From a virus, in the IMG/VR virus record IMGVR_UViG_3300036985_001509, positions 1 through 64,000 of that record: a DNA stretch of 64,000 nt, one strand, 5' to 3'. The translations under genes were made by a program, and so were the position numbers. The notes under the pieces are model-generated. The model was given only the letters and a program-made list of their open reading frames with translations. It did no database searches and had not been told where the DNA came from. Position 1 is the stretch's first letter; every line of letters begins with the position of its first letter. Below, one piece after another: positions 22,205-52,799 of this stretch.

Positions 22205-25200
22205 TTAGAGATTTTTAAATGCTCTTACAATTGAGCTGTTCAGACGCTTCTTTTTGCTCACTTTAATCCCCTTTTTTCCATATCCCTTCAGCTCGTCTTC
22301 TGTCAATACCTCCTCCTCAAAATCAATAGGAGCTGGTTGAACTGGTTGAGCTGGTCTAATACTGGTTGGGGCGATAGGAGTAAAATCAGCAGGAGGAGGA
22401 CCAATTGTTCCTGGAGCTGGTTCAGCACCACCTGGAGGAGGAACTTGTGTAACTGCAGGAGCTCCAGGAGCTGCTGCTGGTACTCTTCCTGTAGGCACAA
22501 TTCCAGGAGTAGCCATGGAAGGAGCTCCATTACCCACCACCTGATACTGCTTTCCATCAGGCCCAGTATACACTGTAGGTATCTGGGGTTGGAAAGGAGC
22601 GTTCATGTTAATAGCTCTAAAGCGTGGGTCATAACGATAGTTGTACAAGTTCTCCATTGTAGCTAACGTTCTGTTTTCCAATCTGTTACGAAGGAACTTA
22701 TCACTGATTGAGTTGAGAGCAGCCTGTGTAGTGGCCTTTGTTTTAGACAAAGCCTCAGCCTGTCTTACATATTGTCTATCAAAAATGTTTAGTTTCTGTA
22801 AACCAAACTGATTGAGCAAGTTTCTGTTCTCTCCATACACTTGATCTCTTTTAGCTTGATTCAGTCTAAACTGCTCAGCCAGCACCTTCTGATTAGCAGC
22901 ATATTTCTGTGCACTCAGCTGACCTTGAATAGCGGGGTTGTAACCAACCATTCTCTGTTGGGATCTGTAGGTAGCCTCATTTTCATTCAGAATATCCTGT
23001 AAAGAAATATCGTAAGGGCTAGACAACTGAGGTTGTACTGTTTGAGCCTGTACAGGTTCCACCTGATTATTGGACAGCGCGTACATCTCACCCATCAACT
23101 GCATTGGGTTGAGGGATTCTGAATCTGAAGGTCTTAGATAAGGCACCACCTGACCAAGAACATCTACCAACGTGTTCCTTTTGTAAGGAGTAATTGGGGG
23201 AATCTGAGCAGCAGTTGGGGCTTGTTGAGGGAGTTCTTGCAACCTTGAGATATTAAGCGTGCCTCCTGGGATTGTGGGTATTGGCTTACTCTCACCATAC
23301 AAAGATTCTGCACTTACGGTTTGCTCACCAAAATCACCATCTACTTGCAAACGAGTGTCAACACCCAATTTCTTAGCCTCTCTATTAAATGCTTTTTGGA
23401 AGTCTCTAACATCAGCATCACTAGAAGGATCAAAGTTTTCCCAATCATACCAAGGGTTTCTGGCCATCATGGCCTCAAAGTCTGCTTGGGTAACATTTCC
23501 ATAAAACACATCACCCTTTTGTTGTCCTGCAGGTACATTAGGAAGAGCCTTCACCTTCTTAAGTTTCTTACCACCCTGAGCTGTATCTTTAAATGCCTCT
23601 TTATCAATCTTCACCTTACCTCTAGCCAAGTCATCAGCAACAATGCCCATTTCCTCAGCTGTGTCATTGATAGCATTTTGCAAGGAGGCAGCTGCCATCT
23701 TCTTATCAGCAATCTCTTTCAGTTTGCTGTTTGCTCCTAACATAGTGTATTGCAACGAGTTAAGGGTCATTCTATCTATAGGGGTGCTCACCTCCAAATC
23801 CTCTAACATCTTTGTAGCGTTGTCAATTTTCTTGTTTTGATTGTTCTCTTTCTTAGACAGATCAGCCACATAGGTTTTGAACTTCTTACCCTTTGCATCA
23901 TTTCCAAGGAACGGCAGATAGGACTTTGGTATCTTGAGGTTGCCAAATACCACTAGGTTGGAGTCAGGGCTGCTACCATCTTTTAGCTTCATGGCAGGTT
24001 CACCTCTTTCCACTTCTACAGGATTCTCACCATAGGTGATACCGATACCAGTGTTTCCTCTTCCATCAGACTCATCGTGAGATTGGCCTCTGAACATAAC
24101 TGTCTCACCACCATCTGGTAGATAGGGGTTGTAGGACATAGGTTCTGCATATCCACCCCAGTGTGTCTGGAGCTCACCACCCATTTGCATTACAGGTCTT
24201 TCTGTAGACATAGCTGCTGCACTAGGAGGAGTGTAAGCTTTTAGATGACCACCAGCTCTGAGCATTTCTGCATCATGAGGAGGTTTAAGAAGGTCTTTTA
24301 AATTGCGTCCTCCAAAGGACGCAATTACTTGTGGTTGCCATGTATGGCTCACCCATTGATAATCAGAAGTTTGTCCACCATCTTCCATCGAAGGTCTACC
24401 GTAAGATCCAGAAAGTTTAACGTTAGTTTTTCCAATTTTTTTATTCCACTCTAAAGAAGCATTTGCTTTTCCTTTTTTTGATGGTGGTTCAACTCTCATA
24501 AAATCAGCATTGGTTTGTTCTTGAGGTTTACCAAAATTTTGATCATATCCACCTTTAATACCTAGTGTACCCCCAAAAAGTGGGAGTGTTGCACTAGTAC
24601 GTAACCTTAAATTATTCCTATCATAATCACCTGTTACTGATAATGCTCTATCTTTACCAAATATTTTTGGAAAATTAAAAGCAAGGTTGTAAGCAGAACT
24701 TCCAAGTTTATCTTTATCAATCATTCCTCTATACCCACCTTCTATATTAAATCTGTTAGGTTGTCCAACATTAAATCCAAGTGACAAAGGTGATCCAATA
24801 CCACCAAATCTAATATCACCCATCCCATCTAAAGTGGGCATTGGAGGTCTAATGCCAGTTCTATTAACAGGAACACAATCTCCATCAGATTCACTATATT
24901 CAAATCCTGGTGGACAGTTTTCTACAGAGGTTCCCTCTTCAGCTTTAGTAACTCCACCATCTTCCATGTAGCTAGCAAACTGACTCTGTATACCCATTCC
25001 GAAGTTTCTTCCCATGATGTCGCCCATGTTTCTTTTGGACTCAGCTTGGTATTTTTTGATTTTCTCCTCGCTTCTATCTATAATTCCACCTACAGCACCT
25101 CCAAGCAAGCCACCAATAGCACCACCGATAGGACCACCAATAGCAGTACCAGCAGCTGTACCAATACCCTTACCTATCTTGTTACCAGCTTCCACCTCAC

Positions 25201-26254
25201 TACCTGTAATCACATTTCCAAGAGTGCCAGCCAAAGCATTTCCGCCTTGGTTATTCATAAAGTTTGTAAAGTCAAATCCACCTTCAGCCTTGTGAAGTTT
25301 GCCACCGTGATAGAATTGCTTATAGCGTTCGCTATCGTTCAAGGGTTCATATCCAAGATTGTCATATAATGTATTGGGAGCGAACGTGTTAGCTATTTCT
25401 CCCCCTCCCACAGATGCGCCAAACTCAGCAAGCACATTTGTACCTACACCATAAGATGGGAACATTTGCTCAGGCTGTATAACTACATCCTCTGGTCTAA
25501 CATATTGACGTCTATTGAGTTGTGCAGGAACACTAGCGGCAGCAAGACCCATAGCATTTGTAAGGGCGGACATTTGCTTAGCCTCTTTAACAGCATCTTG
25601 TTGCTGTTTAATCATGCTAAGTCCCTGTATGACATCTACGCCAGATTGTACAAACATTCCAGTTTTATCGGTTGGTGTTTTAGCACCAATAGGTGCAGCA
25701 GTGGTGCTAGTAGATGTGCTAGGAGCATAGAGAGTTGTAGTGGGAGTTCCACCTCCTGTTGCTCCAGTGCTAGACATTCTGCCTTGATCCCAAGCATCCC
25801 AATCAGACTTCCAAGAGTTATAGTCAGGGTAATTCTCAATCTTTGGCTCAATGTCAATTCCAGTTTGAGCTTTCTTAATCTTCCTACCACGCTTGGCAGG
25901 AGGTGGTACAACCTCCTCACTTAATGTTTGTGGTTTAGTAAACAGTTCTTCTGAGGCTGCCTGCAATACAGTAGGGTCTATGCCATACTGATCAGCAACT
26001 CCTCCAAGAGCTTCTAGCTTTTCTCGGTCATAACTGGTCATTCCTGTAAGCTGATATTCAAGCTCATCGTACATCCCACGGACATCTGCAGGACTGTAGA
26101 CAGGCATTTCAGCCTGACTGGTCATATAGGTGCCTATCTGGGCTTTCTTGAAAGCTTTACCATGTGCCTTCATAAACGATGCCTCATCAGGAAACTTCTT
26201 GTAGAACTCCTTCTCAGACTTAACACCAGCAATTTTCAGGATCTGTTTTTTCAT
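22205..26254 (-). CDS. Mosaic virion cargo protein with beta-barrel-like insert
   Basis: A 1349-residue protein. The start (MKKQILKIAGV, then EKEFYKKFP and KKAQIG at 36-41) is a signature I associate with cargo proteins of Bacteroidota phages. KKAQTG recurs near residue 130. A Gly/Ala/Pro hydrophobic segment around 350-390 (GTAIGGPIGGAIGG) looks membrane-active. Residues 435-625 are different in kind: short alternating strands rich in Gly, Asn and aromatics (for example NASLEWNKKIG and TNVKLSGSYG), like an outer-membrane beta-barrel. They are encoded by DNA of about 30% GC against 43-53% on either side, and flanked by an identical 15-nt repeat. Residues 900-1010 resemble a peptidoglycan-binding-like stretch (DFQKAFNREAKKLGVD, then DGDFGEQT). 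The C-terminus is Pro/Gln-rich and ends in a basic tail. Function is inferred as an ejected virion protein. Confidence 0.7.
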   Translation of the reverse strand: MKKQILKIAGVKSEKEFYKKFPDEASFMKAHGKAFKKAQIGTYMTSQAEMPVYSPADVRGMYDELEYQLTGMTSYDREKLEALGGVADQYGIDPTVLQAASEELFTKPQTLSEEVVPPPAKRGRKIKKAQTGIDIEPKIENYPDYNSWKSDWDAWDQGRMSSTGATGGGTPTTTLYAPSTSTSTTAAPIGAKTPTDKTGMFVQSGVDVIQGLSMIKQQQDAVKEAKQMSALTNAMGLAAASVPAQLNRRQYVRPEDVVIQPEQMFPSYGVGTNVLAEFGASVGGGEIANTFAPNTLYDNLGYEPLNDSERYKQFYHGGKLHKAEGGFDFTNFMNNQGGNALAGTLGNVITGSEVEAGNKIGKGIGTAAGTAIGGPIGGAIGGLLGGAVGGIIDRSEEKIKKYQAESKRNMGDIMGRNFGMGIQSQFASYMEDGGVTKAEEGTSVENCPPGFEYSESDGDCVPVNRTGIRPPMPTLDGMGDIRFGGIGSPLSLGFNVGQPNRFNIEGGYRGMIDKDKLGSSAYNLAFNFPKIFGKDRALSVTGDYDRNNLRLRTSATLPLFGGTLGIKGGYDQNFGKPQEQTNADFMRVEPPSKKGKANASLEWNKKIGKTNVKLSGSYGRPSMEDGGQTSDYQWVSHTWQPQVIASFGGRNLKDLLKPPHDAEMLRAGGHLKAYTPPSAAAMSTERPVMQMGGELQTHWGGYAEPMSYNPYLPDGGETVMFRGQSHDESDGRGNTGIGITYGENPVEVERGEPAMKLKDGSSPDSNLVVFGNLKIPKSYLPFLGNDAKGKKFKTYVADLSKKENNQNKKIDNATKMLEDLEVSTPIDRMTLNSLQYTMLGANSKLKEIADKKMAAASLQNAINDTAEEMGIVADDLARGKVKIDKEAFKDTAQGGKKLKKVKALPNVPAGQQKGDVFYGNVTQADFEAMMARNPWYDWENFDPSSDADVRDFQKAFNREAKKLGVDTRLQVDGDFGEQTVSAESLYGESKPIPTIPGGTLNISRLQELPQQAPTAAQIPPITPYKRNTLVDVLGQVVPYLRPSDSESLNPMQLMGEMYALSNNQVEPVQAQTVQPQLSSPYDISLQDILNENEATYRSQQRMVGYNPAIQGQLSAQKYAANQKVLAEQFRLNQAKRDQVYGENRNLLNQFGLQKLNIFDRQYVRQAEALSKTKATTQAALNSISDKFLRNRLENRTLATMENLYNYRYDPRFRAINMNAPFQPQIPTVYTGPDGKQYQVVGNGAPSMATPGIVPTGRVPAAAPGAPAVTQVPPPGGAEPAPGTIGPPPADFTPIAPTSIRPAQPVQPAPIDFEEEVLTEDELKGYGKKGIKVSKKKRLNSSIVRAFKNL
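24301..24326. repeat. Perfect 10-bp inverted repeat inside the cargo gene
   Basis: AATTGCGTCC, a 6-nt TCCAAA spacer, then GGACGCAATT. It lies within coding sequence (residues about 643-651), 48 bp beyond one edge of the low-GC cassette. It would form a strong hairpin in mRNA. It may be a footprint of recombination or coincidence. Confidence 0.5.
24374..24967 (-). other. In-frame low-GC cassette bounded by 15-nt direct repeats
   Basis: The plus-strand sequence TCCACCATCTTCCAT occurs at 24374-24388 and again at 24953-24967, encoding SMEDGG and YMEDGG on the minus strand. The distance between copies is 579 nt, a multiple of three, so the intervening 188 codons add or remove a domain without shifting frame. 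Sample lines inside are 27-33% G+C, while lines just outside are 43-53%. The encoded segment reads as beta-barrel-like. This has the form of a domain acquired by, or capable of being lost through, recombination between the repeats. Confidence 0.6.
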
Positions 26255-26255
26255 A

Positions 26256-29200
26256 TTAGTTATATTTGTCTAACCATCCACCCTTGGTTGGTTTGTTATA
26301 GTTTGTAAAGTTAAGCAATTGGTCTAGCTTCTTAAGGGGTTGAGCGTCAGCATTATTCACACTAATGCCCTTTTTAGCCACAGGGTATTCTGTTACATAT
26401 TCTCCATCAAACTCATAATCTTCCCCAGGCATCATGTATTGGACATCTCCTGTATCAGATACACCAACTAGGGGTTGATCTACACCCTCCATAGTGATTA
26501 CATTTGAAGGGATAATGACAGGACTTCCTACATTCTCAGGGTTCCAATATCCCATGGGATCTATAGGAATATCTCCGCCATACTGAAAAGCTCTTTTAGG
26601 AGACTCTTCTGACTCACCACCTAACATAGACGCTGCTCCCACTGCAGGAACAGCTGCTGGTAATAAACGAATAAGTGCACGTTTTTCTTCTATCGGTGTG
26701 TCTTTCTTAAAGAATCTATTTAAACTACCTTGACGTATTAACTCATCAACCATTGCATCGTCCGTCATAGTTTCCTTCTGAATCTTGTTTATTGCAGTTT
26801 GATAGTCAAGTCCCTGTTTCATAAGATTCTCATGAGTTCGTCTTCTTGCTATCATTAAATCTGAATGGAGCTCATTGGGCGATGCTTCCCATGTATATTT
26901 TCCTTTCTCAGGTTCAATCATTGCTTTACCAAATCTTTGACCAAGCTCGGTTGTAGGGTTTGGTATATAATATTCATAATCAGGAGATGTAGATGTAGTC
27001 ACTTCTCCCCACGTATCTTTTTTGTAACCATGGTAAGGCACTCCTGTTCTAGGATCATATGATATTCCTCCAAGATTCTGTGCTGTATGACCCGCCTCAT
27101 GTGCTCCTATATCTCCAACAGAACTAGGTCTAAAATAATGAGGACCTTGTCCAAAAAGCGTCATACTTGGACCTGGTCCATATGCATTGACAAAATTAAC
27201 TCCTCCTATCTTATGTCTTTCTTCAAGAAGATATTTTTTAGCATCATCTGAAAGACCAGACTCTAAAATAGATTTTGTGCTACTACCAACTACAACATCA
27301 GGTGAATCTGCAAATGGATTTGTTATAAAACGATAAGAGTCTATTCCAGTGATAGGGTCAGTAGACTTATACGAACTAGTTCCAGAAGTTTTGTAGTTTG
27401 AATAGTATGGATAATTTTCAAGAGGAGCACCTTTTGATTTTAAAATGCTTTCGATTTTCTGTTCTACCTCTGGTCTAATTGCTCCTTTTGAATCGTAGTA
27501 CCAGTCTCTAGCAAATCTAGCTCCTTGAGTATGTTCTTGTGTAGCTTTTTGTTTTGCTAACTGTACTTGTTTTTTAGTGATGGGAAAGGTCTCAGATATA
27601 GGTCTTCCTGATAAAACATCACCAATCCCACGATCTAGTCCACGATTAAAAGATTTAATAGCAGATTGTGTAGATTTAGAAAAAGGAGATAGCATTGCGT
27701 TTGTTATCTTCTTTCCTATTTTGTTGAATGATAAATCCATGCCTGCAACAGGATTCAGCATGTTGTTTGCAAACTGTCCTGTACTTCTAGTTCCAGCTCC
27801 TCCAAGAGCTCCTGTCAGCAATGGACTTACTATTCCAGCAATATAAGGTAGATTAGAATCTGTTTCTCTAGCCATGTATGGGGCTGTAGCCAATCCCTCA
27901 CCCATCTCTCCAAACATTGTGATCGGATTAATCCAGTCAGTCCAATTATTAGACCTAGACATAGATCCTAGGTTTCTACCAGACACATACTGTTGCTCTC
28001 TCCAGTCCATATCCTTCCACAACTTGCTCTCACCAGTTGGGAATGTAAATGGAACGTTAGGATTTTCTCTTGTAGCTTCAGCCGCTTTGCCTTCAGCCAT
28101 TGCTTGTCTATCATATTCCTTGTTCTCTTCTATAACACGCAAGTTTTCAGCTCTACCTCTTTCTACAGCTTGTTCACGTGTATTAGTTGCAGTGAGTGGT
28201 TTGTTCTTTTGAGTTTGTCTTCTAAGTGTCTCAGTTGTAATGCGCTTTTGCATTTCCTCTGACATGGGTTCACCCTTAGTAACAACAGGAGCAGTCTTCT
28301 TACTCTTTAAGTATTCCAACATCTTACCTGTCTGAGCCTGGGGAACATCATACTTATCCAACCAACCGCCATTCTTGCTGATTGTCTTGGGGGTGAAATC
28401 AAGTCCCTCTTGATAGAACTTCATCTCTTGGCCATTCTGTGCACTAGCTTTGGTCTTCTTAGCATAGGGACCGTTAGCAGGAGCAGGACTCTGTGTACGT
28501 GCGTACGTGAATCCTACAGAACCAGGAAGACTTCCACCCATTGCAAACTGTCCTGTAGCAGATCCATAATCTTTTCCTTCCTGAGAACTAGTAAATCTTT
28601 GTTGTTCTACAAATGTTTTCCAGCTATTTCTGTCAGGGAAGTACATTGTCTTCTGAACATCCTTATCAAATGTGGGATAGGTGTAGCTGTATTTAGTAGG
28701 CTTAGACATATCCACTCTTGCCTGTTCAAACGTGGGTTGAGTTATAGTAGGTCTAACATCAGTGAGTTCAATATTAGGAAGATCGACACTAAGATTTGGT
28801 TTTTCTAGTACACGTTTTTTATATTCTACTGGTTGTACTGGTTTTTTGTAAATAGGACTATTAGCAGTGCCATCAAAGTAAGTACCAATAGCTCTAATCT
28901 TATCACTAACTACATCTGGAGAAGAATGATACATTATTTGATTAGGTCCAAATCCCAAACTCTTATAATAATCTATTAATTTTTTATCTTCTCGTCTAGA
29001 TGAGAAATCATTAAAACCTCCTTCAAACTGATCTTTTTCGCTTTGAAAATCTTTAGATATTGGACCAAACTCTTCTAATCCTTTGACAATTTTCTTAACT
29101 CTTCCTTTTTTAAGTTCATCTGTAGTCCATTCAATATTATATTTACTAGTTTCACTACCAGGTCCCATTAACTTATCCTGCATTTGATAAGCTTTGTACA

Positions 29201-30023
29201 AATTCAAACTGTCCTGGTAACTTCTTAGTCTAGGATCTCTAGGATCTGATGTATAGATGGGTTGTCTGATTCCTTTTTGAGCCATGGGAACGGTCTGGTT
29301 AGCTCCAGCCATAGGAGGCTGTAGAATGCCACCACTTTTAAAATTAAACTTTACATCTCTATTCCAAACAGGTTTACGACTTTCAGCATTTCTAATAGAT
29401 TTTATAAGTCTAGTGTATTCCCGTATTTGTGAATCATCTCTGAAAGGACCAGTTCTATAGTTCTCAACCCACTCATAACCTTTTGCAAGTTTACCCATAG
29501 ATTTTGGAGGAGTGTTTTTGTCTCCTTCTCTGTATTCTTCCATACCTGTACCAAGTCCTCTTACCCATCCAGATTTAGTTTCATAGTATTCTGGAACAGT
29601 TGCTCTTTTCTCAAGATAGAATTTATCAAATCTATCATCTGTTGGTAAAGCATATGGAATAGGCTGGTTATAGGACTTTACCCACTCATCACGAAAGTTT
29701 GTAAGATAGTCTCTTGAATATGGTGTGAACGTATCTCCAGTTTGATATTTTGGTAAATCACCACCATCTCTCCAAGCACCACCCCAGGCAGGATTGAAAT
29801 TGAATCCTTTATCTGTTAGTCCTCCCATTGTTCCCTCAATACCATTCTGTGCTTGGGGAGCATCAAATTTATCTAACCAGCCACCAGACTCAACTTTATA
29901 AGGTTTAGCCCCACCAGCAATAGCTCCAAAGAACTTACGTTGTTGTTCTGTAAGAGGATGCCCATGCACCTCCTTGTCGTGAAGGATCTTCTTTGCTTTT
30001 GTGGATGTGAGCTTCTTTGCCAT
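26256..30023 (-). CDS. Mosaic virion cargo protein with HEAGH metallopeptidase-like domain
   Basis: A 1255-residue protein. Residues 21-38 (HGHPLTEQQRKFFGAIAGG) form a motif recurrent in crAss-like cargo proteins. The segment GGWLDK(F/Y)D(A/V)PQAQ(N/T)G appears at 47-61 and 552-566, and its first half again as the last eight residues (1248-1255), dividing the protein into two large blocks. In the second block HEAGH at 975-979 is a zinc-peptidase motif, and ELHSD around 1051 may supply a further ligand. Parts of both blocks (about 108-414 and 714-1128) are encoded by AT-rich DNA (27-37% GC in lines sampled), unlike the flanks, suggesting acquired modules. The stop is 1 bp before the next gene's start. 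The protein is probably packaged and ejected. The peptidase could act on the cell wall, on other cargo proteins or on host targets; the sequence does not tell. Confidence 0.7.
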   Translation of the reverse strand: MAKKLTSTKAKKILHDKEVHGHPLTEQQRKFFGAIAGGAKPYKVESGGWLDKFDAPQAQNGIEGTMGGLTDKGFNFNPAWGGAWRDGGDLPKYQTGDTFTPYSRDYLTNFRDEWVKSYNQPIPYALPTDDRFDKFYLEKRATVPEYYETKSGWVRGLGTGMEEYREGDKNTPPKSMGKLAKGYEWVENYRTGPFRDDSQIREYTRLIKSIRNAESRKPVWNRDVKFNFKSGGILQPPMAGANQTVPMAQKGIRQPIYTSDPRDPRLRSYQDSLNLYKAYQMQDKLMGPGSETSKYNIEWTTDELKKGRVKKIVKGLEEFGPISKDFQSEKDQFEGGFNDFSSRREDKKLIDYYKSLGFGPNQIMYHSSPDVVSDKIRAIGTYFDGTANSPIYKKPVQPVEYKKRVLEKPNLSVDLPNIELTDVRPTITQPTFEQARVDMSKPTKYSYTYPTFDKDVQKTMYFPDRNSWKTFVEQQRFTSSQEGKDYGSATGQFAMGGSLPGSVGFTYARTQSPAPANGPYAKKTKASAQNGQEMKFYQEGLDFTPKTISKNGGWLDKYDVPQAQTGKMLEYLKSKKTAPVVTKGEPMSEEMQKRITTETLRRQTQKNKPLTATNTREQAVERGRAENLRVIEENKEYDRQAMAEGKAAEATRENPNVPFTFPTGESKLWKDMDWREQQYVSGRNLGSMSRSNNWTDWINPITMFGEMGEGLATAPYMARETDSNLPYIAGIVSPLLTGALGGAGTRSTGQFANNMLNPVAGMDLSFNKIGKKITNAMLSPFSKSTQSAIKSFNRGLDRGIGDVLSGRPISETFPITKKQVQLAKQKATQEHTQGARFARDWYYDSKGAIRPEVEQKIESILKSKGAPLENYPYYSNYKTSGTSSYKSTDPITGIDSYRFITNPFADSPDVVVGSSTKSILESGLSDDAKKYLLEERHKIGGVNFVNAYGPGPSMTLFGQGPHYFRPSSVGDIGAHEAGHTAQNLGGISYDPRTGVPYHGYKKDTWGEVTTSTSPDYEYYIPNPTTELGQRFGKAMIEPEKGKYTWEASPNELHSDLMIARRRTHENLMKQGLDYQTAINKIQKETMTDDAMVDELIRQGSLNRFFKKDTPIEEKRALIRLLPAAVPAVGAASMLGGESEESPKRAFQYGGDIPIDPMGYWNPENVGSPVIIPSNVITMEGVDQPLVGVSDTGDVQYMMPGEDYEFDGEYVTEYPVAKKGISVNNADAQPLKKLDQLLNFTNYNKPTKGGWLDKYN

Positions 30024-30903: not shown

Positions 30904-33900
30904 TTACACTCCACAAGAACCACTAGTAGAGACAGTACCAGATCCACCAGTGATTGCTATAGAACCAGTGATTGCACAAACATTCGCAGTGGTGGTGAAT
31001 GAGCCCAAGGCAGGTTCACCAGTTCCACACTCTGACCAGGTTAGCTGGATTGAACCAACTGGCTCAACAAGATAGTTTGTACAATTATCTAAGTAAGAGG
31101 TAGTTGTAGTTGTGGTTGTGCTGCTACTTGTAGTGGTAGTGGTAGTAGGTGTTATAGTTGTTGTGGTGGTGGTAGTTGGGACGCAAGGTGTACAGTCTTC
31201 ATCAGATGTACAAGTTGTTCCACAGTTATACTTATACAATGTACCACCACTTGGACTAGTAACTATAAACAAGCTTCCAGCTTTAATACAATGAACTGTT
31301 GAACCACCAATAACCAGAGTGTTAGTCTGCTGAATACCCTCACAATCTGTATGTATGTAAGTGATTGGTAGATCCTCTCCATTCACCACCGTCCAGCATT
31401 GACAAGGTAGTGTTGTAGTGGTAGTAGTGGTTGTTGGAACAGCTGTAGTGGTTGTGCTAGTTGTTGATGTAGTGGATGTACTTGTTGTAGTAGTTGATGT
31501 GGTGGAGCTTGTAGATGTACTAGATGTAGTGGTAGTTGTTGGAACAGGTCCAATTGTAGCAGCCAATATATCAAAATCATCACAACATCCATTGATACCA
31601 GAATAAAAGAAGTTGTTCTCACCAATGTACCAGTTGGGCAGATAGCTGTGGAAGCTTATCCAGCTCTTGGTATTGAAGTTGAAAGACACTGTCCAACTCT
31701 TGTTACAGAAGTATTCTGTGTCTGTCAGATATACCACCTTACGTGTAACTAAAGGAGCAACGGTGGTTGTAGTGGTGAGAGTGCCTGGTTTGGTCGTTGT
31801 ACTAGTGGTGGTTCCTGCGGATGTAGTAGTGCTAGTAGTAGTAGGAGGGTTCTGAGGATAACTACTGTCTATGTAGAACTCATTAGTTACAGGGTCCCAC
31901 TTAATATCAGCGCTCTTTGGAATATAGTCAAGCTTAGTGATAATAACACGGTCATATTTACTATCGTACACACCATGTAAACCAATACCATTGAAGTGGT
32001 TATCAATAGGCACATCGGGGAAGTAACGCAAGATCTCAAAGGCCAGGTGGTCTGTAAAGAACCTGTTCATTCCTGATCCAAAGGCTGACAGGTCTGTAAC
32101 CTGTGTACCAGCAACCAAGAACACCTGACCACGTTTAGCATCTATTGTAATCTGTCCCTGTGGAATCTTAAGGAGCATCTTGTGCTGGGTTCCTACATAT
32201 CCCAAATCAGTTTCAGCAAAATCAATTGGAGGAGCTCCTCTAAACAGAGAAGGATTACCAACATAAGCTGCCTGAGGGTTACTAGTGTCAATTGTCAACA
32301 GGTTGTTGTACAACAAACTCTTGTTCTCAAATCTAGCCAGAATAGCTCTGTTCTGAATTCCGTCCAGAGAAATAAGATCTCCAAAGTTCTGAGGGAAGTC
32401 AAAATAGGAAATAGCTCTGTAAGTGAGCCAGTTATTTACTGTGTTATCAGCATCTATATTCTGTGCGTCTGAATAGATTGCTCTAAACGGATACTGTGTA
32501 AAACATATAGCCTTCCAGTCATACGGCAGGTGTGTAAATACGTTCTCTTTGTTTTGCTTGGAGAAGGTTACATTGTAATAGTAGGTATTGTCCTGAGCAA
32601 TAGAAACATAGTCTTCTTGTACCCAATCATCAGGAATACCTGTACTTACATGTGGCCAGAAGTCTCCTTCTCTGTTGTTGAAAGCCTGACGTAAGTCAAC
32701 ATTGTAAGAGCTCTCACAGTAGAAATACGGAATGCCGTACGCAAACACATACATCTTACCATCATAGTAGGTTCTGCCAGGACTTGTAATAGGTGTTTGA
32801 CTATTAGGACAGTCTAACTGGTTAGCCTTGATGGATATGAAGTTTGTAAGGTTTTGTTGAGCCGCTACTGCTGTAGTGAGGATGGAACGTGCGGAGTGCC
32901 AATACTTTGGATAGGCCACATTACCAATCTCATCGTAGAAGATATCACTATCATCAGGAGCATTCACCCTGTTATCAATAAAGAAAGGTATCTTGGTCTT
33001 GAAGGCAAATTTGCTAATAAACGTATCACCTCCAAAGAAGGTAGCACTGCTAACTGTCAGAGGGGTGATATCTCTTTGGAATCCTGTATCTACAGTTGCA
33101 TAAGAATACATCTGCCCATACTGATTAGCATATATATTCTTCAGAGATCCATAGTAGCATATTGTACTTATGTATTCTTCCTTAGCAGGAGTGCCACAGT
33201 TATTACTAGTTCCATTAACACCAGCCGCACTGAGAGTCATTCTAGACCTATCGTTAACCGTTCCACCAATAGTGGGAGTTTGGTTGGGTAACGGAAGGGG
33301 AGGTCTGTTACCATCTGTCTTCAGATATACAGAACTCTCTCTGTTCCAGTTATTTACATTTCTATCATCTCCTACCCCCTGTACACCAGGAATGAGGTAT
33401 TGTTTTAAATCAAGCTCACGTTGCTTAATACCTAGGTTGTTGTTAATATCATTACCATAGTCATAACTGGCTATAGAGTTGTAGGAATAAGCATAGTTAC
33501 GTCTGGTGATACCATTAACGTAAATAGTAAGATAGGCCTGATAAGCAGCAAACAGAGCACTTGCATTAGCAGGATCTGTAATGTTTGCTATATTAGTAGC
33601 ACTGTTTAACGCATCCTGTTGAGCCTCAGCACTTAGGAGTCTGTACATGGCGTTCTTGTTCACCTGTACAAAGTGAGCCCTACCAGCACCATATATTACA
33701 TTCTCTAGCTTAAGAATGCTACCCAGGAATGGCTGTCCAAAAGAAGTTTCAGGAGAGTTAAATACATGTCTGTACTGAGACGCAGGATCACTAAAAGCAT
33801 CTAGTTTATCTGGATAGCAATTATCATTTCCTACAGAGCGTACAAATTCCACCTTGAAAATTGTACCTTCTCCTAGGGTGCTTTGATCAAACGTTGGTGT

Positions 33901-36279
33901 TGTAAGTGAAGCAATATTAAATACAAACTGTCTTGCTTCTCCAGGAACAAATCCAGGAACTACTGCTACATACTGATTGCTTAGGTCAAGAGGTTTATTA
34001 AAAATCGAGGTGCAGCAAGGTAATAATGGATCTTCTACAAGCGTAAGAGCACAATATTTTGTCCAACCATCAATAGGACCTCCAGGCATAGTAAATCCTG
34101 TAGGAGGAGGAAGTGGGTTTCCTTGACGTAGTCCGCATCTAGTAATAGGCCAAACTAGTCTAAACACAACATTTTGTGGTGTTGCATTAACCTTATCAAT
34201 TGTAATTTTATATACATTATAAGTATTAGAACCAATTGCTCCTGTAGCACCTCCTTTAAATATGGGCTTTGGATAGTCAAGAGCACAGAGATGAATAATA
34301 GTATTCACCTCAGCAAGCGTAATATCTCTAGTGGCTGTTTCTCCTGTGTAGCAGTCAAGATATTCAATCTGACCAGCAGCTGTTGGATAGATGCTAAAAT
34401 CTCTACACTGGGACGTAGTGCTTGTTGCAGCAAGAGGAATAGTATAAGCGTTGCTCTTCTCTAACAGGAACGGGTCCTGTCTAAGATCGTTATAAGGATA
34501 GTTGGGGAAGTAGTATTCTGTACCCTCACGGTCATACTTACCCATGTTTCTAAGAATACCCTTAGCTACGATAGATCTGTTGGTGCTTCTGTCACCACGG
34601 ATAATCTTAAATCCAGCTATCTGATTCTTCTGTTCAGTGGTTAGACCAGACGCTTGGATGAGAGACTGTACCTGTTGTACATCTATTTTTACACCCATTG
34701 GGAAAATAGCATCCTTTTGAATCACCATTGTATCTTGTCCTGTAAATAGAGCAGACTCAAATATGGGACTCACTAGCACATCTGGGAACTTGTGGTGTCT
34801 AATCTTCTGACCTGCCAGAGTTCCCCACAACTCATCATTACAAGGATACTCTTCTAAAGACTCCCAGTAGGCAAAATCACCATATTGATAAGGACCTTTA
34901 TAGGCTACTGCTGGGGAATAACCAGGAGAGAATCCTGAAACAGTACCTGTATTATATATCTTCCAATAGGGACTAGTTCCTGTAATAGGATCTGGGTCAC
35001 CTACAAAATCATCGTTTGTTTGAGGAACAGGAGCTAAGTCATTGCTAACTGCAACTCTTCCTGGAATGTGGAACCCATCAGTTTGTTTACCGTTATTGAG
35101 GAGGAATACAATCTCAAAGGCATACACCTCATCCCTCAGATATCCTCTGAAGTTGGTGGCATTTAGCTCATCTGCATAATTCTCATTAGCAGGAATACGG
35201 TAGGTTTCCCATTGCAAGGTGATACCAGTAGCTATCTGCTGGTAGTTAATTCTTTCAACAGACGTAAGCTGATCCCAAACCAGAATATCGCGTACAGCCG
35301 TTACGTCCTGAGCAATCTCGTAATAGGGGAACTTCTCAAATATGTCATCAACTGTCAGACGAATGGCAGTTTTGTTCTGACCTGAATAGGTAATCACCTG
35401 ACCTGGACCATCAATAAAATATGTACCTATCAACTCTACAGAGGTGATAGCATTTACAGTTCTAATAACTGCTACATTAAAATATTGGTAGAGTCCTGTA
35501 TTATCTAAGTTGCTGACAGTGAGTTCAATAGATCTACCCACTGGATAATTAAAATTAGCAGTGGTGATACTTGGGTCAGCAATAGGGGTGGGGTTAGTAA
35601 CAGAGTAGTAGGAAGTGTAAGGATTGGAAGCAGAGTCACAATACTGAATAGCAAACTGATATGTGCCTGCCTGTAGCTCACCACCTGAAACTATATTTGT
35701 AACGTCCAGTTGGGGAATGACAAAGTCAGGTTGTACATTTAGTCCGTTACAATCTATATCACTGCTGTAAACAGGATCGCACGCGGGCGTACCCCCTATA
35801 AGAATATAGGGTAGATTCTCAGGATTGAGATCAATATATCTACGGGGATTGAGTCCATCTGTCCAATATACCTCTGTGGTACACTCTGTAATCTTGTGAA
35901 CAGATTTATGGATTGGATTATTAATGTTGAAATTGAGACAAGGGGCATTTACATACTTACGGTAAACGCAGTCATTATTATCCATGTATCCTATCTCAGA
36001 ATCACCTGTTTCTGGATTAGTAATGAAGAATACATGTTTGTTCTTCTCTTGGATGAAATGGGTACCAATTAATACAAAGCCAGAAGGGAATGTAACGCAA
36101 AGTTCATTCCCTGGCTCATTCTGATAGTTTACAGAATTAGCATCAAAGTTTTCGACAGCAGCATTCAGCGCGTACGTTAGCTTACCTTTACCAACCTGGT
36201 TGAGGGTCTGATCGAGGTTTAAGCCAGTGGTAGCGTTGTTGAACTCCTGTCTTATACTGCCTTGTTCTTGCTCAGCCAT
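30904..36279 (-). CDS. Tail stabilization / muzzle protein (P22 gp10-like) with Thr-rich appendix
   Basis: A 1791-residue protein. Position directly after the tail tubular protein, large size and beta-rich propeller-like composition match the 'stabilization' or muzzle protein that closes the short tail of crAss-like phages. The first 1470 residues resemble that family. The C-terminal 320 residues carry three polythreonine linkers (about 1476-1503, 1576-1623 and 1699-1726) separated by compact domains. Two of these domains (about 1628-1690 and 1730-1791) share a pattern of C..(W/Y).V..., then (Y/W)..(D/E)C.G, then a further Cys, with the domain at 107-170 of the 529-residue appendage. The Thr linkers resemble mucin-like, possibly glycosylated stalks. 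I infer that the core gates DNA release while the appendix displays adhesion domains at the tail tip. Confidence 0.7.
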   Translation of the reverse strand: MAEQEQGSIRQEFNNATTGLNLDQTLNQVGKGKLTYALNAAVENFDANSVNYQNEPGNELCVTFPSGFVLIGTHFIQEKNKHVFFITNPETGDSEIGYMDNNDCVYRKYVNAPCLNFNINNPIHKSVHKITECTTEVYWTDGLNPRRYIDLNPENLPYILIGGTPACDPVYSSDIDCNGLNVQPDFVIPQLDVTNIVSGGELQAGTYQFAIQYCDSASNPYTSYYSVTNPTPIADPSITTANFNYPVGRSIELTVSNLDNTGLYQYFNVAVIRTVNAITSVELIGTYFIDGPGQVITYSGQNKTAIRLTVDDIFEKFPYYEIAQDVTAVRDILVWDQLTSVERINYQQIATGITLQWETYRIPANENYADELNATNFRGYLRDEVYAFEIVFLLNNGKQTDGFHIPGRVAVSNDLAPVPQTNDDFVGDPDPITGTSPYWKIYNTGTVSGFSPGYSPAVAYKGPYQYGDFAYWESLEEYPCNDELWGTLAGQKIRHHKFPDVLVSPIFESALFTGQDTMVIQKDAIFPMGVKIDVQQVQSLIQASGLTTEQKNQIAGFKIIRGDRSTNRSIVAKGILRNMGKYDREGTEYYFPNYPYNDLRQDPFLLEKSNAYTIPLAATSTTSQCRDFSIYPTAAGQIEYLDCYTGETATRDITLAEVNTIIHLCALDYPKPIFKGGATGAIGSNTYNVYKITIDKVNATPQNVVFRLVWPITRCGLRQGNPLPPPTGFTMPGGPIDGWTKYCALTLVEDPLLPCCTSIFNKPLDLSNQYVAVVPGFVPGEARQFVFNIASLTTPTFDQSTLGEGTIFKVEFVRSVGNDNCYPDKLDAFSDPASQYRHVFNSPETSFGQPFLGSILKLENVIYGAGRAHFVQVNKNAMYRLLSAEAQQDALNSATNIANITDPANASALFAAYQAYLTIYVNGITRRNYAYSYNSIASYDYGNDINNNLGIKQRELDLKQYLIPGVQGVGDDRNVNNWNRESSVYLKTDGNRPPLPLPNQTPTIGGTVNDRSRMTLSAAGVNGTSNNCGTPAKEEYISTICYYGSLKNIYANQYGQMYSYATVDTGFQRDITPLTVSSATFFGGDTFISKFAFKTKIPFFIDNRVNAPDDSDIFYDEIGNVAYPKYWHSARSILTTAVAAQQNLTNFISIKANQLDCPNSQTPITSPGRTYYDGKMYVFAYGIPYFYCESSYNVDLRQAFNNREGDFWPHVSTGIPDDWVQEDYVSIAQDNTYYYNVTFSKQNKENVFTHLPYDWKAICFTQYPFRAIYSDAQNIDADNTVNNWLTYRAISYFDFPQNFGDLISLDGIQNRAILARFENKSLLYNNLLTIDTSNPQAAYVGNPSLFRGAPPIDFAETDLGYVGTQHKMLLKIPQGQITIDAKRGQVFLVAGTQVTDLSAFGSGMNRFFTDHLAFEILRYFPDVPIDNHFNGIGLHGVYDSKYDRVIITKLDYIPKSADIKWDPVTNEFYIDSSYPQNPPTTTSTTTSAGTTTSTTTKPGTLTTTTTVAPLVTRKVVYLTDTEYFCNKSWTVSFNFNTKSWISFHSYLPNWYIGENNFFYSGINGCCDDFDILAATIGPVPTTTTTSSTSTSSTTSTTTTSTSTTSTTSTTTTAVPTTTTTTTTLPCQCWTVVNGEDLPITYIHTDCEGIQQTNTLVIGGSTVHCIKAGSLFIVTSPSGGTLYKYNCGTTCTSDEDCTPCVPTTTTTTTITPTTTTTTSSSTTTTTTTSYLDNCTNYLVEPVGSIQLTWSECGTGEPALGSFTTTANVCAITGSIAITGGSGTVSTSGSCGV

Positions 36280-39899: not shown

Positions 39900-41489
39900 T
39901 TACGGAGTCTCATCAACCGTTACCGTAATGCTATGATTGCTGTCTAGGAAGTAGTTCTTAACAGAATTCACAGATGTTGATATCGCAGAAGGTACAGTGA
40001 TTGTCTCACCAGAGCTGCCATCATTAGCAGTTCCTACAATTGTTATCGTGTATGCCTGTGCTAATACCAATTCACGTATTGTTACATTACAGTATCCAGC
40101 AATATTTGATTGAGTGATAGGACCAGCCTGACCACCGTTTATGATCACCTCAATAGGTGTGCCTGTTCCAGGCGAGTATAAACAGTTAGCCAAGTCTGCT
40201 GTGTAATCATTTGTTGTAGGATCTCCAGCTCCTCTTTGAATTATCATGTCACCATCTCCCAGTGTAGGAGAAGTTACCACTGTAAAGCAAGTGTTAGCAC
40301 TTAAGGTAGGAAGAGGCACAAATACTGTTTCACCAGGTATACAAGTGACAGGATCAAGAGGATTAGAAGAATAAGGGAAGTAGTCAATGAAGTATGCATA
40401 TTCTGTAGTTCCTCCTCCAATAGAATATGGAGTACCACCCACAGTAACAGAATAGCTATTCAGAGTGACACCCAACGGAGTTGTCAAACCTGCATCAGAG
40501 AAGAACGCAATCCATACAGATTTAGATTGAGAAGGTTCTGCTACAGGACCTCCATCACAAGTAACATTTGTTGTGGTATCTACCTCTCCTTGAGACCAGA
40601 ACAATGCTGCATAGGCATCTTCAGGGAAGCCACTGGTAATACAGAAAGCAACAGTGGTCGTGGTTGTAGTTGTAGGAGGAATGCCAGTAGTAGTTGTGGT
40701 AGTTGTTGTAGGAGGCTCAATAGTGGTTGTAGTAGTGGTAGTGGGTGATTCAATAGTTGTAGTGGTAGTTGTTGTAGGAGGTATTAATGTGGTTGTAGTT
40801 GTGGTAGTAGGTGGTACTAAAGTAGTTGTAGTAGTAGTGGTTGGAGGCTCAATAGTGGTTGTAGTTGTGGTGGTTGGGGGAATAAGAGTAGTTGTAGTAG
40901 TTGTAGTTGTGGGCGGTACAGCTGTTGTAGTTGTAGTTGTTGTAGGTGGTGTAGTGGTAGTTGTTGTTGTAGTTGTGGGACACGCGCCAAGAGTTGAAAG
41001 CGTTACACCAGGGATGGGTGGTACAACAACAGATCCTGTACAAGCACACACATAAATAGTGCTAGGTCCTGCGACACATGTTTGAATGTATATTCCTCCA
41101 CAAGCGTAGTAAACAATGTCAACACTTGAAACAGTGGAATTGGTTACAGAATAGAATGTACAAGAAGGACATGCTATTGTAGTGGTGGTAGTAGTAGTTG
41201 GAACTACAGTTGTGGTGGTGCTGGTTGTTGTTGGGCAACAGTTGTTCAGAGAAGCTTGAAGAATACTGATTTGTTGCTTCAACAAACATATTTGAGCATC
41301 AACCTTTTGAAACGCTACAGTTACTGTGTCACAGGTCTTGATTTGTGTACAAGGTAGATTGGGACCACTATAAGAAACGTTATTTGTTGGTATAGGAGAT
41401 GCATTACAAGGATCGCATCCACCATATCCACCACAGGGAGATGGAGGTGGGGTTGGTGTGCAGCACGGGTTTGGTGGTAGGAATATCAT
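39900..41489 (-). CDS. Tail appendage with polythreonine stalk
   Basis: A 529-residue protein. Residues 1-32 are Pro/Cys/Gly-rich. Residues 38-68 (VSYSGPNLP...D-T-V...KVD) match the N-terminal module shared by four appendage proteins in this window. Two short Thr runs (86-104) precede a small Cys domain (107-170) like those at the end of the stabilization protein. Residues 171-280 are a stalk of ten PP/EP-plus-T(6-8) units with two-residue spacers such as LI, IE and AV. Residues 281-529 form a Thr/Ser/Gly/Val-rich beta-structured tip. The design (anchor, rigid and possibly O-glycosylated stalk, tip) suggests a receptor- or mucus-binding fibre. Thr codons in the stalk are mixed (ACA/ACT/ACC), which limits slippage. 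No known domain was recognised in the tip. Confidence 0.7.
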   Translation of the reverse strand: MIFLPPNPCCTPTPPPSPCGGYGGCDPCNASPIPTNNVSYSGPNLPCTQIKTCDTVTVAFQKVDAQICLLKQQISILQASLNNCCPTTTSTTTTVVPTTTTTTTIACPSCTFYSVTNSTVSSVDIVYYACGGIYIQTCVAGPSTIYVCACTGSVVVPPIPGVTLSTLGACPTTTTTTTTTPPTTTTTTTAVPPTTTTTTTTLIPPTTTTTTTIEPPTTTTTTTLVPPTTTTTTTLIPPTTTTTTTIESPTTTTTTTIEPPTTTTTTTTGIPPTTTTTTTVAFCITSGFPEDAYAALFWSQGEVDTTTNVTCDGGPVAEPSQSKSVWIAFFSDAGLTTPLGVTLNSYSVTVGGTPYSIGGGTTEYAYFIDYFPYSSNPLDPVTCIPGETVFVPLPTLSANTCFTVVTSPTLGDGDMIIQRGAGDPTTNDYTADLANCLYSPGTGTPIEVIINGGQAGPITQSNIAGYCNVTIRELVLAQAYTITIVGTANDGSSGETITVPSAISTSVNSVKNYFLDSNHSITVTVDETP

Positions 41490-50205: not shown

Positions 50206-52799
50206 TATTCTTTCTTAGGTTTTTTAGCTCTACCTTTTGCGTTCTCTTTAGCTATGGCCAAGTCATTTCTCTGGTTCTCACGATCTACCTTAAGTTTCTC
50301 TCTTTCAAGAGATATCTTCTCAGCGGCCAGTCTGTTCTTGGTGCTAATGTCTGCCATCTTCATCTGATAGTCCTTAGCCGTTCTGTCTTGCTCTGCACTT
50401 ATCTTACTGATTTCCAACACATCAGGAACTCCTGACTCATCTACATCAGAGAGTCCCATGCCCATAGACTTGGCTTCAGCAGCAATCAGTGCCACCTCTT
50501 TCTTGTTTATGCGGTCAAGCTCGTTCTGGTAGTTTTCATTAGCAATATCCTGCTCCTTCTGCATCTGAGCCTGTTGCATTTGAGCTTGAGCAATTTGACT
50601 CTGCTGTTCAACCTGCTGCTGTTGCATGTCAAGTTTCTGCTGCTCCATTTTCTGCTGTCTGTCACGCAAGTCTTTAAACACCTTCTTCATTTCTCTCATA
50701 GACTTGGTGCTGTACAGCTCAATTACGTCATACAGAGATCCACCATTCTGCATCAAAGGTTGTGCCAGCTGACGAAGCTCATTGAACATCTGTGTATCCT
50801 CAGGACGATTTGTCAAGAATACCTTCAGGTCACGGAACTTAAGATCAGAACCGTTCACTGATACAAAAGCGCTCTCACCCTCGCTAGTGATATAGCTGAG
50901 AGTGGACTGGGGCTTCTTGCTTTCTACATACAGGGCAGCATCAATGATGGCCTGGTAGAGTTGACCCATAACATACTCATGGGCTATGAACAGGGGCTCT
51001 GTTTGAGAATAAGATTGTTGTACGGCTGTGTTTACACCTGTAGCAGATTCGCTAGATGTAATAGATCCCATACGTTGTCTACTCATCCCCACGAGTTCCC
51101 AACATTCGCTCTTTAACTGTTGGGCTAGGGTATAACGAGATTGGATTTCCTGTGTACGTGTAAGGTCAATATCTCTAAACTGGTTGAATGAGCTTGGGCT
51201 CTTCAGGTTTTCAGGGCTGTCGTCAATAAAGACAACACCTCTGTTTCTTGCTTCTAATTCCCAAATGTCAAGAGCATCCTGAGCATCACCATCCTTAGGA
51301 ACAGGAATATGTCTGATGGATGTTAAATACACCTTACCCACTTCCTTCTCCAGCAGCTTATAGAGCTGGTTCATACATACATTATACAACACCTGGAAAG
51401 GCTTCATTAAATCCACCAGAGACTTAGCTTCTGTGTTCTTCACCTCAAAGGTGATACCAATAAGAGGGCAGTAGTTGAGGAGCTTGAAAGGTTTAACGTG
51501 GTAGATATCTGGACCAATCTTGGTGCCCTGATACCACTGGTTAATCCAGCCCCATTCCAAACTTTGCTGTGTAGGAATGGTGCCGCTCTTGTAGTTTTCA
51601 TCTACCAGAACTGACTGTTCGTTACCCATCTCGTCTACATAGATGAGTTTACCAATCTTCTTCTTGCTCAACCAGTAACCTCTAACAACAACATACTTAT
51701 ATCCAAAGGATGATACGTTGGAGGTGAGTCCCAAGAAATCCTTGAGACCATCATTGTTCTCCTTCATTTCACTCTCGATAATCATACGGGTTTGAAGGAC
51801 CAGTGGATCAAATGTATCATAGGTAACTGAGTCAATACCAGGAACAGCGTTGGGGTTACCCAGATTTGATTCACGGACGTTAATTAGTCCATAGTCTTGC
51901 AGAGAACTTCTTAGATGGTCTATTTCTTCTTTAGTAAGATCAGGAATGCTTTCAATGATCTCTGAAAGCTCCATAACTTGAACAGTACCTGCAGCATACG
52001 CACCTTGAGCTCGCCCTGTAGGGTCAGAGATATATTTTCTATCAGGCGTTGTAAGGAACCATGTGTTTTTCGGGTTAGCCACCTCGATATTGAATCCCAG
52101 CTTAGAATTGTCCTCATAGATGTGATAGAATTCTCTTCCAGAAATAAGCATGTCTCTAAACGCGTCCTCACTTTTCTCCTTCAGGTTGAACTCAGCCTTC
52201 TGGCAAGTGAGCACATGATTGGCCCATTTCTCAGCTACAGAAGTGTAGCTATCTAGGACATCCTGTACTTCCTCCATTGTCATCTGTTGAACTTCCTCTT
52301 CAGAAAGCTCCTCACCATTCATAGCAGCGTTTGCCAATATCTGCTGTCTAGCTCTACCCAGAACATATTGTTGAAGTATATCTGTCTTAAACTCCAGCTC
52401 TTCAGACTTACTATCATCATCAAACGCCTTCACCCTGAATGTATCAGGGCGTTTACTAATCTCACCCACCAGCTCGTTTACAGGAGTGGTGATGATGGAA
52501 TACATCTTAACATACGCAGGCAATTGTAGATCGGCTGTAAGCACATCTGTAAAACTTCTCACCTGAGGCTCCTGATAGAAATCTTCCATCCTCAGGATGC
52601 CTTTCATTAGGTCGTAGTTTTTGACAAATGTATCTCGGTTCTTTACATACTCAGCATAAGCCTTGTTTGCAAAGTAGTCCATAGTGTTCTTAATCCAGCT
52701 CTCATCTTGCTTCTCCTTATCAGTCTTGAACTGATCAGGGAAGATGTTAAGATAGGCATACCTAATGGTAGCATCTTTCGTATATCTAATAATTGCCAT
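50205..52799 (-). CDS. Portal protein
   Basis: An 864-residue protein directly after TerL with TAATG overlap at 52799, the usual crAss-like order. The N-terminal 120 residues and central crown region contain the scattered aromatic/charged pattern of portal proteins. About residues 560-620 hold LTRTQEIQSRYTLAQQLKSE, then SRQRMGSITSSESATG, as in phage portals. The C-terminus (about 700-860) is Gln/Met/Lys/Glu coiled coil, forming the barrel. Twelve copies would form the dodecameric DNA channel. It has no catalytic motif. Confidence 0.8.
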   Translation of the reverse strand: MAIIRYTKDATIRYAYLNIFPDQFKTDKEKQDESWIKNTMDYFANKAYAEYVKNRDTFVKNYDLMKGILRMEDFYQEPQVRSFTDVLTADLQLPAYVKMYSIITTPVNELVGEISKRPDTFRVKAFDDDSKSEELEFKTDILQQYVLGRARQQILANAAMNGEELSEEEVQQMTMEEVQDVLDSYTSVAEKWANHVLTCQKAEFNLKEKSEDAFRDMLISGREFYHIYEDNSKLGFNIEVANPKNTWFLTTPDRKYISDPTGRAQGAYAAGTVQVMELSEIIESIPDLTKEEIDHLRSSLQDYGLINVRESNLGNPNAVPGIDSVTYDTFDPLVLQTRMIIESEMKENNDGLKDFLGLTSNVSSFGYKYVVVRGYWLSKKKIGKLIYVDEMGNEQSVLVDENYKSGTIPTQQSLEWGWINQWYQGTKIGPDIYHVKPFKLLNYCPLIGITFEVKNTEAKSLVDLMKPFQVLYNVCMNQLYKLLEKEVGKVYLTSIRHIPVPKDGDAQDALDIWELEARNRGVVFIDDSPENLKSPSSFNQFRDIDLTRTQEIQSRYTLAQQLKSECWELVGMSRQRMGSITSSESATGVNTAVQQSYSQTEPLFIAHEYVMGQLYQAIIDAALYVESKKPQSTLSYITSEGESAFVSVNGSDLKFRDLKVFLTNRPEDTQMFNELRQLAQPLMQNGGSLYDVIELYSTKSMREMKKVFKDLRDRQQKMEQQKLDMQQQQVEQQSQIAQAQMQQAQMQKEQDIANENYQNELDRINKKEVALIAAEAKSMGMGLSDVDESGVPDVLEISKISAEQDRTAKDYQMKMADISTKNRLAAEKISLEREKLKVDRENQRNDLAIAKENAKGRAKKPKKE

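What the first reader, a model, noticed from the sequence alone, without database searches (positions are those of the whole stretch)
24374..24967. In-frame low-GC beta-barrel-like cassette flanked by 15-nt direct repeats in a virion cargo gene
The repeat TCCACCATCTTCCAT sits on both sides of 564 bp (188 codons). Lines sampled inside are 27-33% G+C against 43-53% outside. The protein switches from cargo-like to alternating strands (NASLEWNKKIG, TNVKLSGSYG) typical of outer-membrane barrels. This suggests domain gain by recombination at short repeats, and an ejected virion protein that might form an envelope channel.
Basis: partly seen in the sequence, partly recalled or inferred. Interest (0 to 1): 0.75.

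Follow-up and report, generated by a model that had tools for sequence, protein, structure and literature searches.

The report
Swappable domain gained in crassvirus cargo gene
A crAss-like phage has gained a 188-amino-acid, beta-strand-rich block in a protein predicted to be carried in its virion, inserted exactly at a short Gly-Gly motif; related phages swap many different blocks, including enzyme domains, at motifs of the same kind, so these genes look like a plug-in platform for proteins delivered into bacteria.

Summary
TCCACCATCTTCCAT occurs only at 24374 and 24953 in the 91-kb record, flanking 564 bp in frame (V435-S622 of a 1349-aa gene). The cassette has the lowest third-position GC (13%) of any 188-codon stretch tested. 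The closest relative (L007, 85-89% DNA identity) has the empty site with exactly one copy of the 15-mer. None of about 65 distinct relatives has this cassette, so it is a gain in the window lineage.

The virus is a crassvirus, and the gene lies where crassvirus cargo genes lie. The 15-mer encodes MEDGG, and an xxxGG motif is conserved at this site. In this gene and its upstream neighbour, relatives carry many other insertions (40 to over 700 aa) with ends strongly enriched for GG or AQxG motifs. Some neighbours carry enzyme domains (ADP-ribosyltransferase, histidine phosphatase, SET, amidase). A homologue in Cellulophaga phage phi4:1 is annotated as a virion protein from MS/MS. This resembles phage polyvalent proteins, with GG motifs as junctions.

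The barrel claim is not established: the segment is probably a beta meander, but both models have low confidence (pLDDT 39, 44) and no homologue was found. Verdict: domain gain supported; barrel channel unproven.

The parts
22205..26254 (-). cargo B gene, 1349 aa, host of the cassette
   Evidence: open frame; gene order after muzzle and ring genes; segment homologous to virion protein gp040 of phi4:1, hhalign E 8.5e-14
24953..24967 (-). upstream (protein N-side) copy of the repeat, ATGGAAGATGGTGGA = M430-EDG-G434; ancestral junction motif
   Evidence: exact match; same 15-mer at the empty site in L007; xxxGG conserved at this place in nearly all relatives
24389..24952 (-). cassette, 188 codons (V435-S622): KAEEG start, CPPGF..DGDCVP motif, then a beta-strand-rich region
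   Evidence: absent in L007 and all relatives examined; GC3 13%; beta meander in low-confidence models
24374..24388 (-). downstream copy of the repeat, M623-EDG-G627
   Evidence: exact match; same codons as the upstream copy
25070..25237 (-). glycine-zipper-like, probably membrane-active segment (about aa 340-395) upstream of the insertion site
   Evidence: conserved in relatives; the only part that aligns with PhicrAss001 gp45 (42 columns, probability 60%)
26256..30023 (-). cargo A gene, 1255 aa, neighbouring mosaic gene
   Evidence: 484 aa in L007; 239-1701 aa in the relatives that have it, with shared end sequences
26575..28368 (-). second insertion relative to L007, about 1,794 bp, GGCGG at both ends (KNGG and QYGG)
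   Evidence: blastn break points and junction sequences; part of it resembles L098/L099 cargo-type proteins
27087..27101 (-). HEAGH zincin-like metal-site motif inside the cargo A insertion
   Evidence: motif HExxH; weak Peptidase_M4 match, E 0.086, below cut-off

Best explanation
In a crassvirus predicted virion-cargo gene (cargo B), a 188-codon low-GC cassette was gained at a conserved xxxGG junction, most likely by recombination with another sequence that carried the same 15-nt MEDGG-coding stretch at the ends of the cassette. It is one case of a general design: the two adjacent cargo genes of this clade have conserved ends and cores, between which variable domains are exchanged at short GG or AQxG motifs. 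The product is probably packed in the virion and ejected into the cell, and the cassette rides along as an accessory module beside a membrane-active glycine-zipper segment. Shown: the gain, the empty site, and the enrichment of GG/AQxG at insertion ends. Inferred: the recombination mechanism, packing and ejection of this particular protein, and the role of the GG motifs as flexible linkers or processing sites. The cassette's own activity is undetermined; a beta-sheet module that binds a host or envelope component is my best guess.
For: Single 15-mer and no cassette in L007 with 85-89% DNA identity on either side. No such cassette in about 65 distinct relatives, with xxxGG at the same place in nearly all. 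Insertion ends lie at GG or AQxG on both sides in 59% of 318 cargo A events against 2% at random positions, and 28% of 81 against 2% in cargo B; stricter sets against outward-shifted controls give 68% vs 2.8% and 36% vs 0.1%, and with one event per insert cluster 46% vs 1.2% (13 events) and 33% vs 0.8% (9 events). Direct repeats of at least 10 nt at insertion ends: 5.9% of 185 events against 0.55% of control pairs; the window case (15 nt) ties for the longest. A second insertion in the window's cargo A ends in GGCGG on both sides. Enzyme domains in cargo A of relatives: ADP-ribosyltransferase 1.5e-12 and histidine phosphatase 7.7e-21, amidase 6.4e-20, SET 9.7e-7. Crassvirus identity from Crass_capsid, crAss_MUZ and CrAss_Ring_1. 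phi4:1 gp040 and gp041 are annotated as virion proteins by MS/MS; gp041 carries a tail lysozyme domain and two HExxH-type motifs and GG motifs.
Against: The donor of the cassette was not found. Identical codons in two MEDGG motifs occur by chance in about 4% of cases, so the DNA repeat could partly reflect selection on the peptide. Insertion events are not independent: single linkage reduces them to 22 clusters, two of them very large. Most insertion ends share only short DNA identity (mean 6.5 nt against 5.5 in controls), so homologous recombination is not shown for most. No read data were available to exclude an assembly join. No proteomics exists for this virus.
Confidence: 0.75

Rival explanations
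1. The cassette is an outer-membrane-type beta-barrel that inserts into the envelope after ejection and forms or lines a channel for phage DNA or proteins.
For: About eight amphipathic stretches of 9-12 residues; highest mean alternation index of the segments compared; the models show hairpin strands, and weak fold matches include beta-barrels (Tom complex, GFP, lipocalins), all non-significant; a glycine-zipper segment lies upstream; gp45 and gp46 of PhicrAss001 are expected to take part in channel formation (PMC10172136).
Against: Model confidence is too low to call a fold; no fold match reaches E 0.001; known barrels did not stand out in the alternation test, so it cannot discriminate; all aligned relatives do without the segment, so it is not needed for ejection.
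Confidence: 0.15
2. The cassette is a soluble beta-sheet module (binding, adhesion or decoy) carried on cargo B and acting in the periplasm or cytoplasm. This is a sub-reading of the best explanation, which leaves the activity open.
For: Beta-rich sequence with an N-terminal two-cysteine motif resembling one in a protein of L098 (E 0.006); other cassettes in the clade are soluble enzyme-like domains.
Against: No recognisable family; no homologue from which to infer activity.
Confidence: 0.45
3. The segment is ancestral and was deleted in relatives by recombination between the two 15-mers.
For: A deletion between the repeats would leave exactly the site seen in L007.
Against: It would require independent loss in every relative aligned, down to about 36% identity, and of the first 14 relatives only L007 holds the exact 15-mer; the segment also differs in GC3 from its flanks.
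Confidence: 0.05
4. The cassette is an assembly chimera joined at the 15-mer.
For: Unique in all collections searched; joined at an exact short repeat.
Against: 188 codons without a stop, in frame at both ends, on the same strand; the neighbouring gene has an independent insertion of similarly low GC3 bounded by GGCGG.
Confidence: 0.05

Closest known systems
Polyvalent proteins of phages and conjugative elements (Iyer et al. 2017, PMC5512222)
   Same: Large multidomain proteins predicted to be delivered with parasite DNA, mixing disparate domains (metallopeptidase, ADP-ribosyltransferase, kinase and others) and evolving fast by mosaicism
   Different: The term crAss does not occur in that paper's main text; here the exchange points are short GG/AQxG motifs in a conserved scaffold next to the crassvirus muzzle gene; the window cassette itself has no recognisable effector domain
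Crassvirus cargo proteins C1 (gp45) and C2 (gp46) of PhicrAss001 (PMC10172136)
   Same: Position after the muzzle gene and before large RNA-polymerase-type genes; a glycine-rich membrane segment in gp45
   Different: No match to Pfam crAss_CARG1 or crAss_CARGO2; hhalign links only 42 glycine-rich columns and nothing for gp46
Cellulophaga phage phi4:1 gp040 and gp041
   Same: gp040 shares an 83-column segment with cargo B (E 8.5e-14), has many xxxGG motifs and is annotated as MS/MS-detected; gp041, next to it, carries a lysozyme domain and two HExxH-type motifs
   Different: Homology outside the shared segment was not detected; no cassette of the window's type; gp041 was not shown to be homologous to cargo A

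Membership tests
Crassvirales (virus of the window) | Crassvirus capsid, muzzle and ring proteins | tested here: met
   Crass_capsid 1.4e-26, crAss_MUZ 1.3e-33, CrAss_Ring_1 1.4e-11
Crassvirus cargo protein 1 / 2 (Pfam PF25725, PF25712) | Match to the crAss_CARG1 or crAss_CARGO2 profile | tested here: not met
   No such hit for cargo A or B at E up to 1; both profiles detect gp45 and gp46
Crassvirus cargo protein 1 / 2 (Pfam PF25725, PF25712) | Gene position downstream of the muzzle gene | tested here: met
   Order ring, muzzle, 288-aa gene, cargo A, cargo B in the window; gp44, gp45, gp46 in crAss001
Polyvalent proteins | Several domains of disparate activity combined in one polypeptide, variable between relatives | tested here: inconclusive
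   Variation of domains between relatives is clear for cargo A: ADP-ribosyltransferase, histidine phosphatase, SET, amidase + LysM, metallopeptidase-like; two or more recognised activities in one polypeptide were seen only as LysM + amidase; no recognised enzyme domain in cargo B
Polyvalent proteins | Packed in the virion and injected with DNA | not testable with these tools
   Indirect only: phi4:1 gp040 and gp041 are annotated virion proteins by MS/MS
Outer-membrane beta-barrel | Confident barrel fold or homology to a barrel family | tested here: inconclusive
   pLDDT 39 and 44; no significant fold or sequence match
Outer-membrane beta-barrel | Membrane insertion | not testable with these tools
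   needs experiment

The most novel reading that the evidence does not exclude
Crassvirus cargo A and B are a plug-in platform for proteins delivered into the host: conserved scaffold segments carry interchangeable domain cassettes whose ends are short GG or AQxG motifs that work both as recombination points and as linkers or processing sites, and the window cassette is a newly installed beta-sheet module of this platform.
Probability: 0.4. Interest if true: 0.78.

Novelty: new variant of a known kind. Interest (0 to 1): 0.6.

Why it matters
Crassviruses are among the most abundant phages of the human gut, and how their large cargo proteins work is largely unknown. The comparison shows that two adjacent cargo genes are exchangeable mosaics with a recognisable junction motif and, in relatives, enzyme domains that could act on the host at the start of infection. 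That gives a rule for finding such modules in crassvirus genomes and a test case (filled and empty site between close relatives) for how virion proteins gain domains.

Tried and rejected
Homologues of the cassette: IMG/VR and GTDB peptide-pattern scans, whole and in parts, tblastn on phage records, whole records of 14 relatives and 8 further records, and local phmmer/blastp on all fetched loci; none. Apparent hits in L196, L134, L221, L148 and L188 were rejected on reading: the L196 stretch looks like a VanY/M15-type peptidase, and the others are the conserved cargo B C-terminus. Fold prediction of the cassette alone was too weak to use, so the fold searches are not evidence. The amphipathicity test does not discriminate known barrels. 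Homology of cargo A/B to PhicrAss001 gp45/gp46 was tested and not found beyond a glycine-rich stretch. Deletion in relatives and assembly chimera were considered and judged unlikely.

Full report
Observation. The 15-mer TCCACCATCTTCCAT lies at 24374-24388 and 24953-24967, with no other match at up to two mismatches in the window (expected 0.17) and no other exact copy in the 91-kb record. On the minus strand it reads ATGGAAGATGGTGGA, MEDGG, at residues 430-434 and 623-627 of a 1349-aa gene (22205-26254). Between the copies are 188 codons. GC is 35.6% against 44.2% in the rest of the gene, and GC3 is 13.3% against 35-37% in the flanks. No 188-codon stretch elsewhere in 21 genes has GC3 as low; the next lowest (14.9%) lies in an insertion in the neighbouring gene.

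Filled and empty sites. L007 (IMG/VR, 95 kb) aligns over the gene at 85-89% DNA identity. At the position of the cassette it has exactly one copy of the 15-mer and continues directly into the conserved WVSHTWQPQ segment. Thirteen further relatives lack the cassette, and so do the distinct cargo B proteins from a larger search, where xxxGG (often FMEDGG, FMQDGG or FMENGG) sits at the same place in nearly all. The cassette is therefore a gain in the window lineage. The whole records of L003-L016 contain no homologue elsewhere, nor do eight further records apart from a rejected match.

What the gene is. The virus is a crassvirus: Crass_capsid, crAss_MUZ and CrAss_Ring_1 match the predicted capsid, muzzle and ring proteins. 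The gene lies three genes downstream of the muzzle gene, before very large genes, much as the cargo genes gp45 and gp46 follow the muzzle gene in PhicrAss001 (PMC10172136). It does not match the Pfam models of those cargo proteins, and profile comparison links it to gp45 only through a glycine-rich stretch. A segment near residues 915-990 is homologous to gp040 of Cellulophaga phage phi4:1 (E 8.5e-14), annotated as a virion protein from MS/MS. Virion location of the window protein is thus likely but not shown. 'Cargo A' and 'cargo B' are my working names.

A general pattern. The upstream neighbour (cargo A, 26256-30023) is 1255 aa here and 484 aa in L007. The window carries an insertion of about 1.8 kb there whose two ends both read GGCGG. 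Across relatives, cargo A ranges from 239 to 1701 aa with shared end sequences. Among pairwise comparisons of cargo A and of cargo B, insertion ends coincide with GG or AQxG on both sides in 59% of 318 cargo A events and 28% of 81 cargo B events, against 2% at random positions. Stricter events compared with positions shifted outward give 68% vs 2.8% and 36% vs 0.1%; with one event per insert cluster, 46% vs 1.2% (13 events) and 33% vs 0.8% (9 events). The events are not independent and the cluster test is small, but the direction is the same in all versions. At the DNA level, direct repeats of at least 10 nt at insertion ends are about ten times more frequent than in controls, and the window's 15-nt case is tied for the longest. 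Some relatives have cargo A and cargo B sequence in one open frame (L034, L035, L066, L073).

What is carried. Cargo A of relatives includes ADP-ribosyltransferase (L201), histidine phosphatase (L180), amidase plus LysM (L161) and SET (L078) domains, and metallopeptidase-like matches. phi4:1 gp041, beside gp040 and likewise annotated as a virion protein, carries a tail lysozyme domain and two HExxH-type motifs. Disparate domains in proteins thought to be delivered with the DNA are the polyvalent-protein theme of Iyer et al. (PMC5512222), whose main text does not contain the term crAss. My literature searches found no description of this pattern in crassviruses, but the library holds open-licence papers only.

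The cassette itself. It starts with KAEEG and a two-cysteine motif (CPPGF..DGDCVP) and continues with about eight amphipathic beta-like stretches. Two single-sequence AlphaFold models have mean pLDDT 39 and 44, both with beta hairpins; fold searches gave no significant match. No homologue was found anywhere searched. A simple alternation test gave the highest mean for this segment, but known barrels did not separate from other proteins, so it does not decide. A beta-sheet module is likely; an outer-membrane barrel is possible and unproven.

Mechanism proposed. A donor carrying the cassette between MEDGG-coding stretches recombined with the ancestral MEDGG site, leaving one copy at each end. 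The motif is conserved in protein, so selection for a linker or processing site at each module border may maintain the DNA repeats that make further exchange possible; identical codons for two MEDGG motifs would arise by chance in about 4% of cases, so the repeat alone is not proof of recombination. The expected sequel (packing, ejection and action of the module in the host) is inferred from crassvirus cargo biology.

Verdict. Observation confirmed; domain gain at the repeat supported; virion-cargo assignment likely; barrel and channel not established. The broader result, cassette exchange at GG/AQxG junctions in two crassvirus cargo genes, is the more interesting outcome.

Noticed in passing
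window 26575-28368 (-): Second large insertion relative to L007, in cargo A, with GGCGG at both ends, a HEAGH motif and a membrane-like stretch (WKDMDWREQQYVSGRNLGS...) shared with cargo-type proteins of L098 and L099.
   Followed up: partly
window 27767-27783 and 28541-28557: 17-nt direct repeat TTGCAAACTGTCCTGTA within cargo A, 774 bp apart and in frame (TGQFA in both).
   Followed up: no
L201:5889-9290, L180:8025-11417, L161:372-3533, L078:3417-7973: Cargo A proteins with ADP-ribosyltransferase, histidine phosphatase, LysM plus amidase, and SET domains respectively.
   Followed up: partly
L098:5740-8253: Cargo-type protein with, by eye, ADP-ribosyltransferase-like and protein-kinase-like stretches after the shared membrane-like module; only DUF5872 was found by Pfam.
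   Followed up: no
L034, L035, L066, L073: Cargo A and cargo B sequence in a single open frame.
   Followed up: partly
L047:7377-7997, L044:183-839: Short open frames directly upstream of cargo B that look like homing endonucleases (GIY-YIG-like and HNH-like by eye).
   Followed up: no
L196:8943-12464, about residues 660-790: Stretch in a cargo B protein that looks like a VanY/M15-type peptidase by eye; no Pfam match at E 0.05.
   Followed up: no
window 39900-41489 and 30904-36279 (-): Long poly-threonine linkers with tandem PTTTTTTT units in a predicted structural protein and in the muzzle protein.
   Followed up: no
window 52799-54823 (-): The best terminase match among phage records is Leptolyngbya phage Lbo-JY46 (40.5% identity), listed with a cyanobacterial host although crassviruses are known from Bacteroidota.
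   Followed up: no
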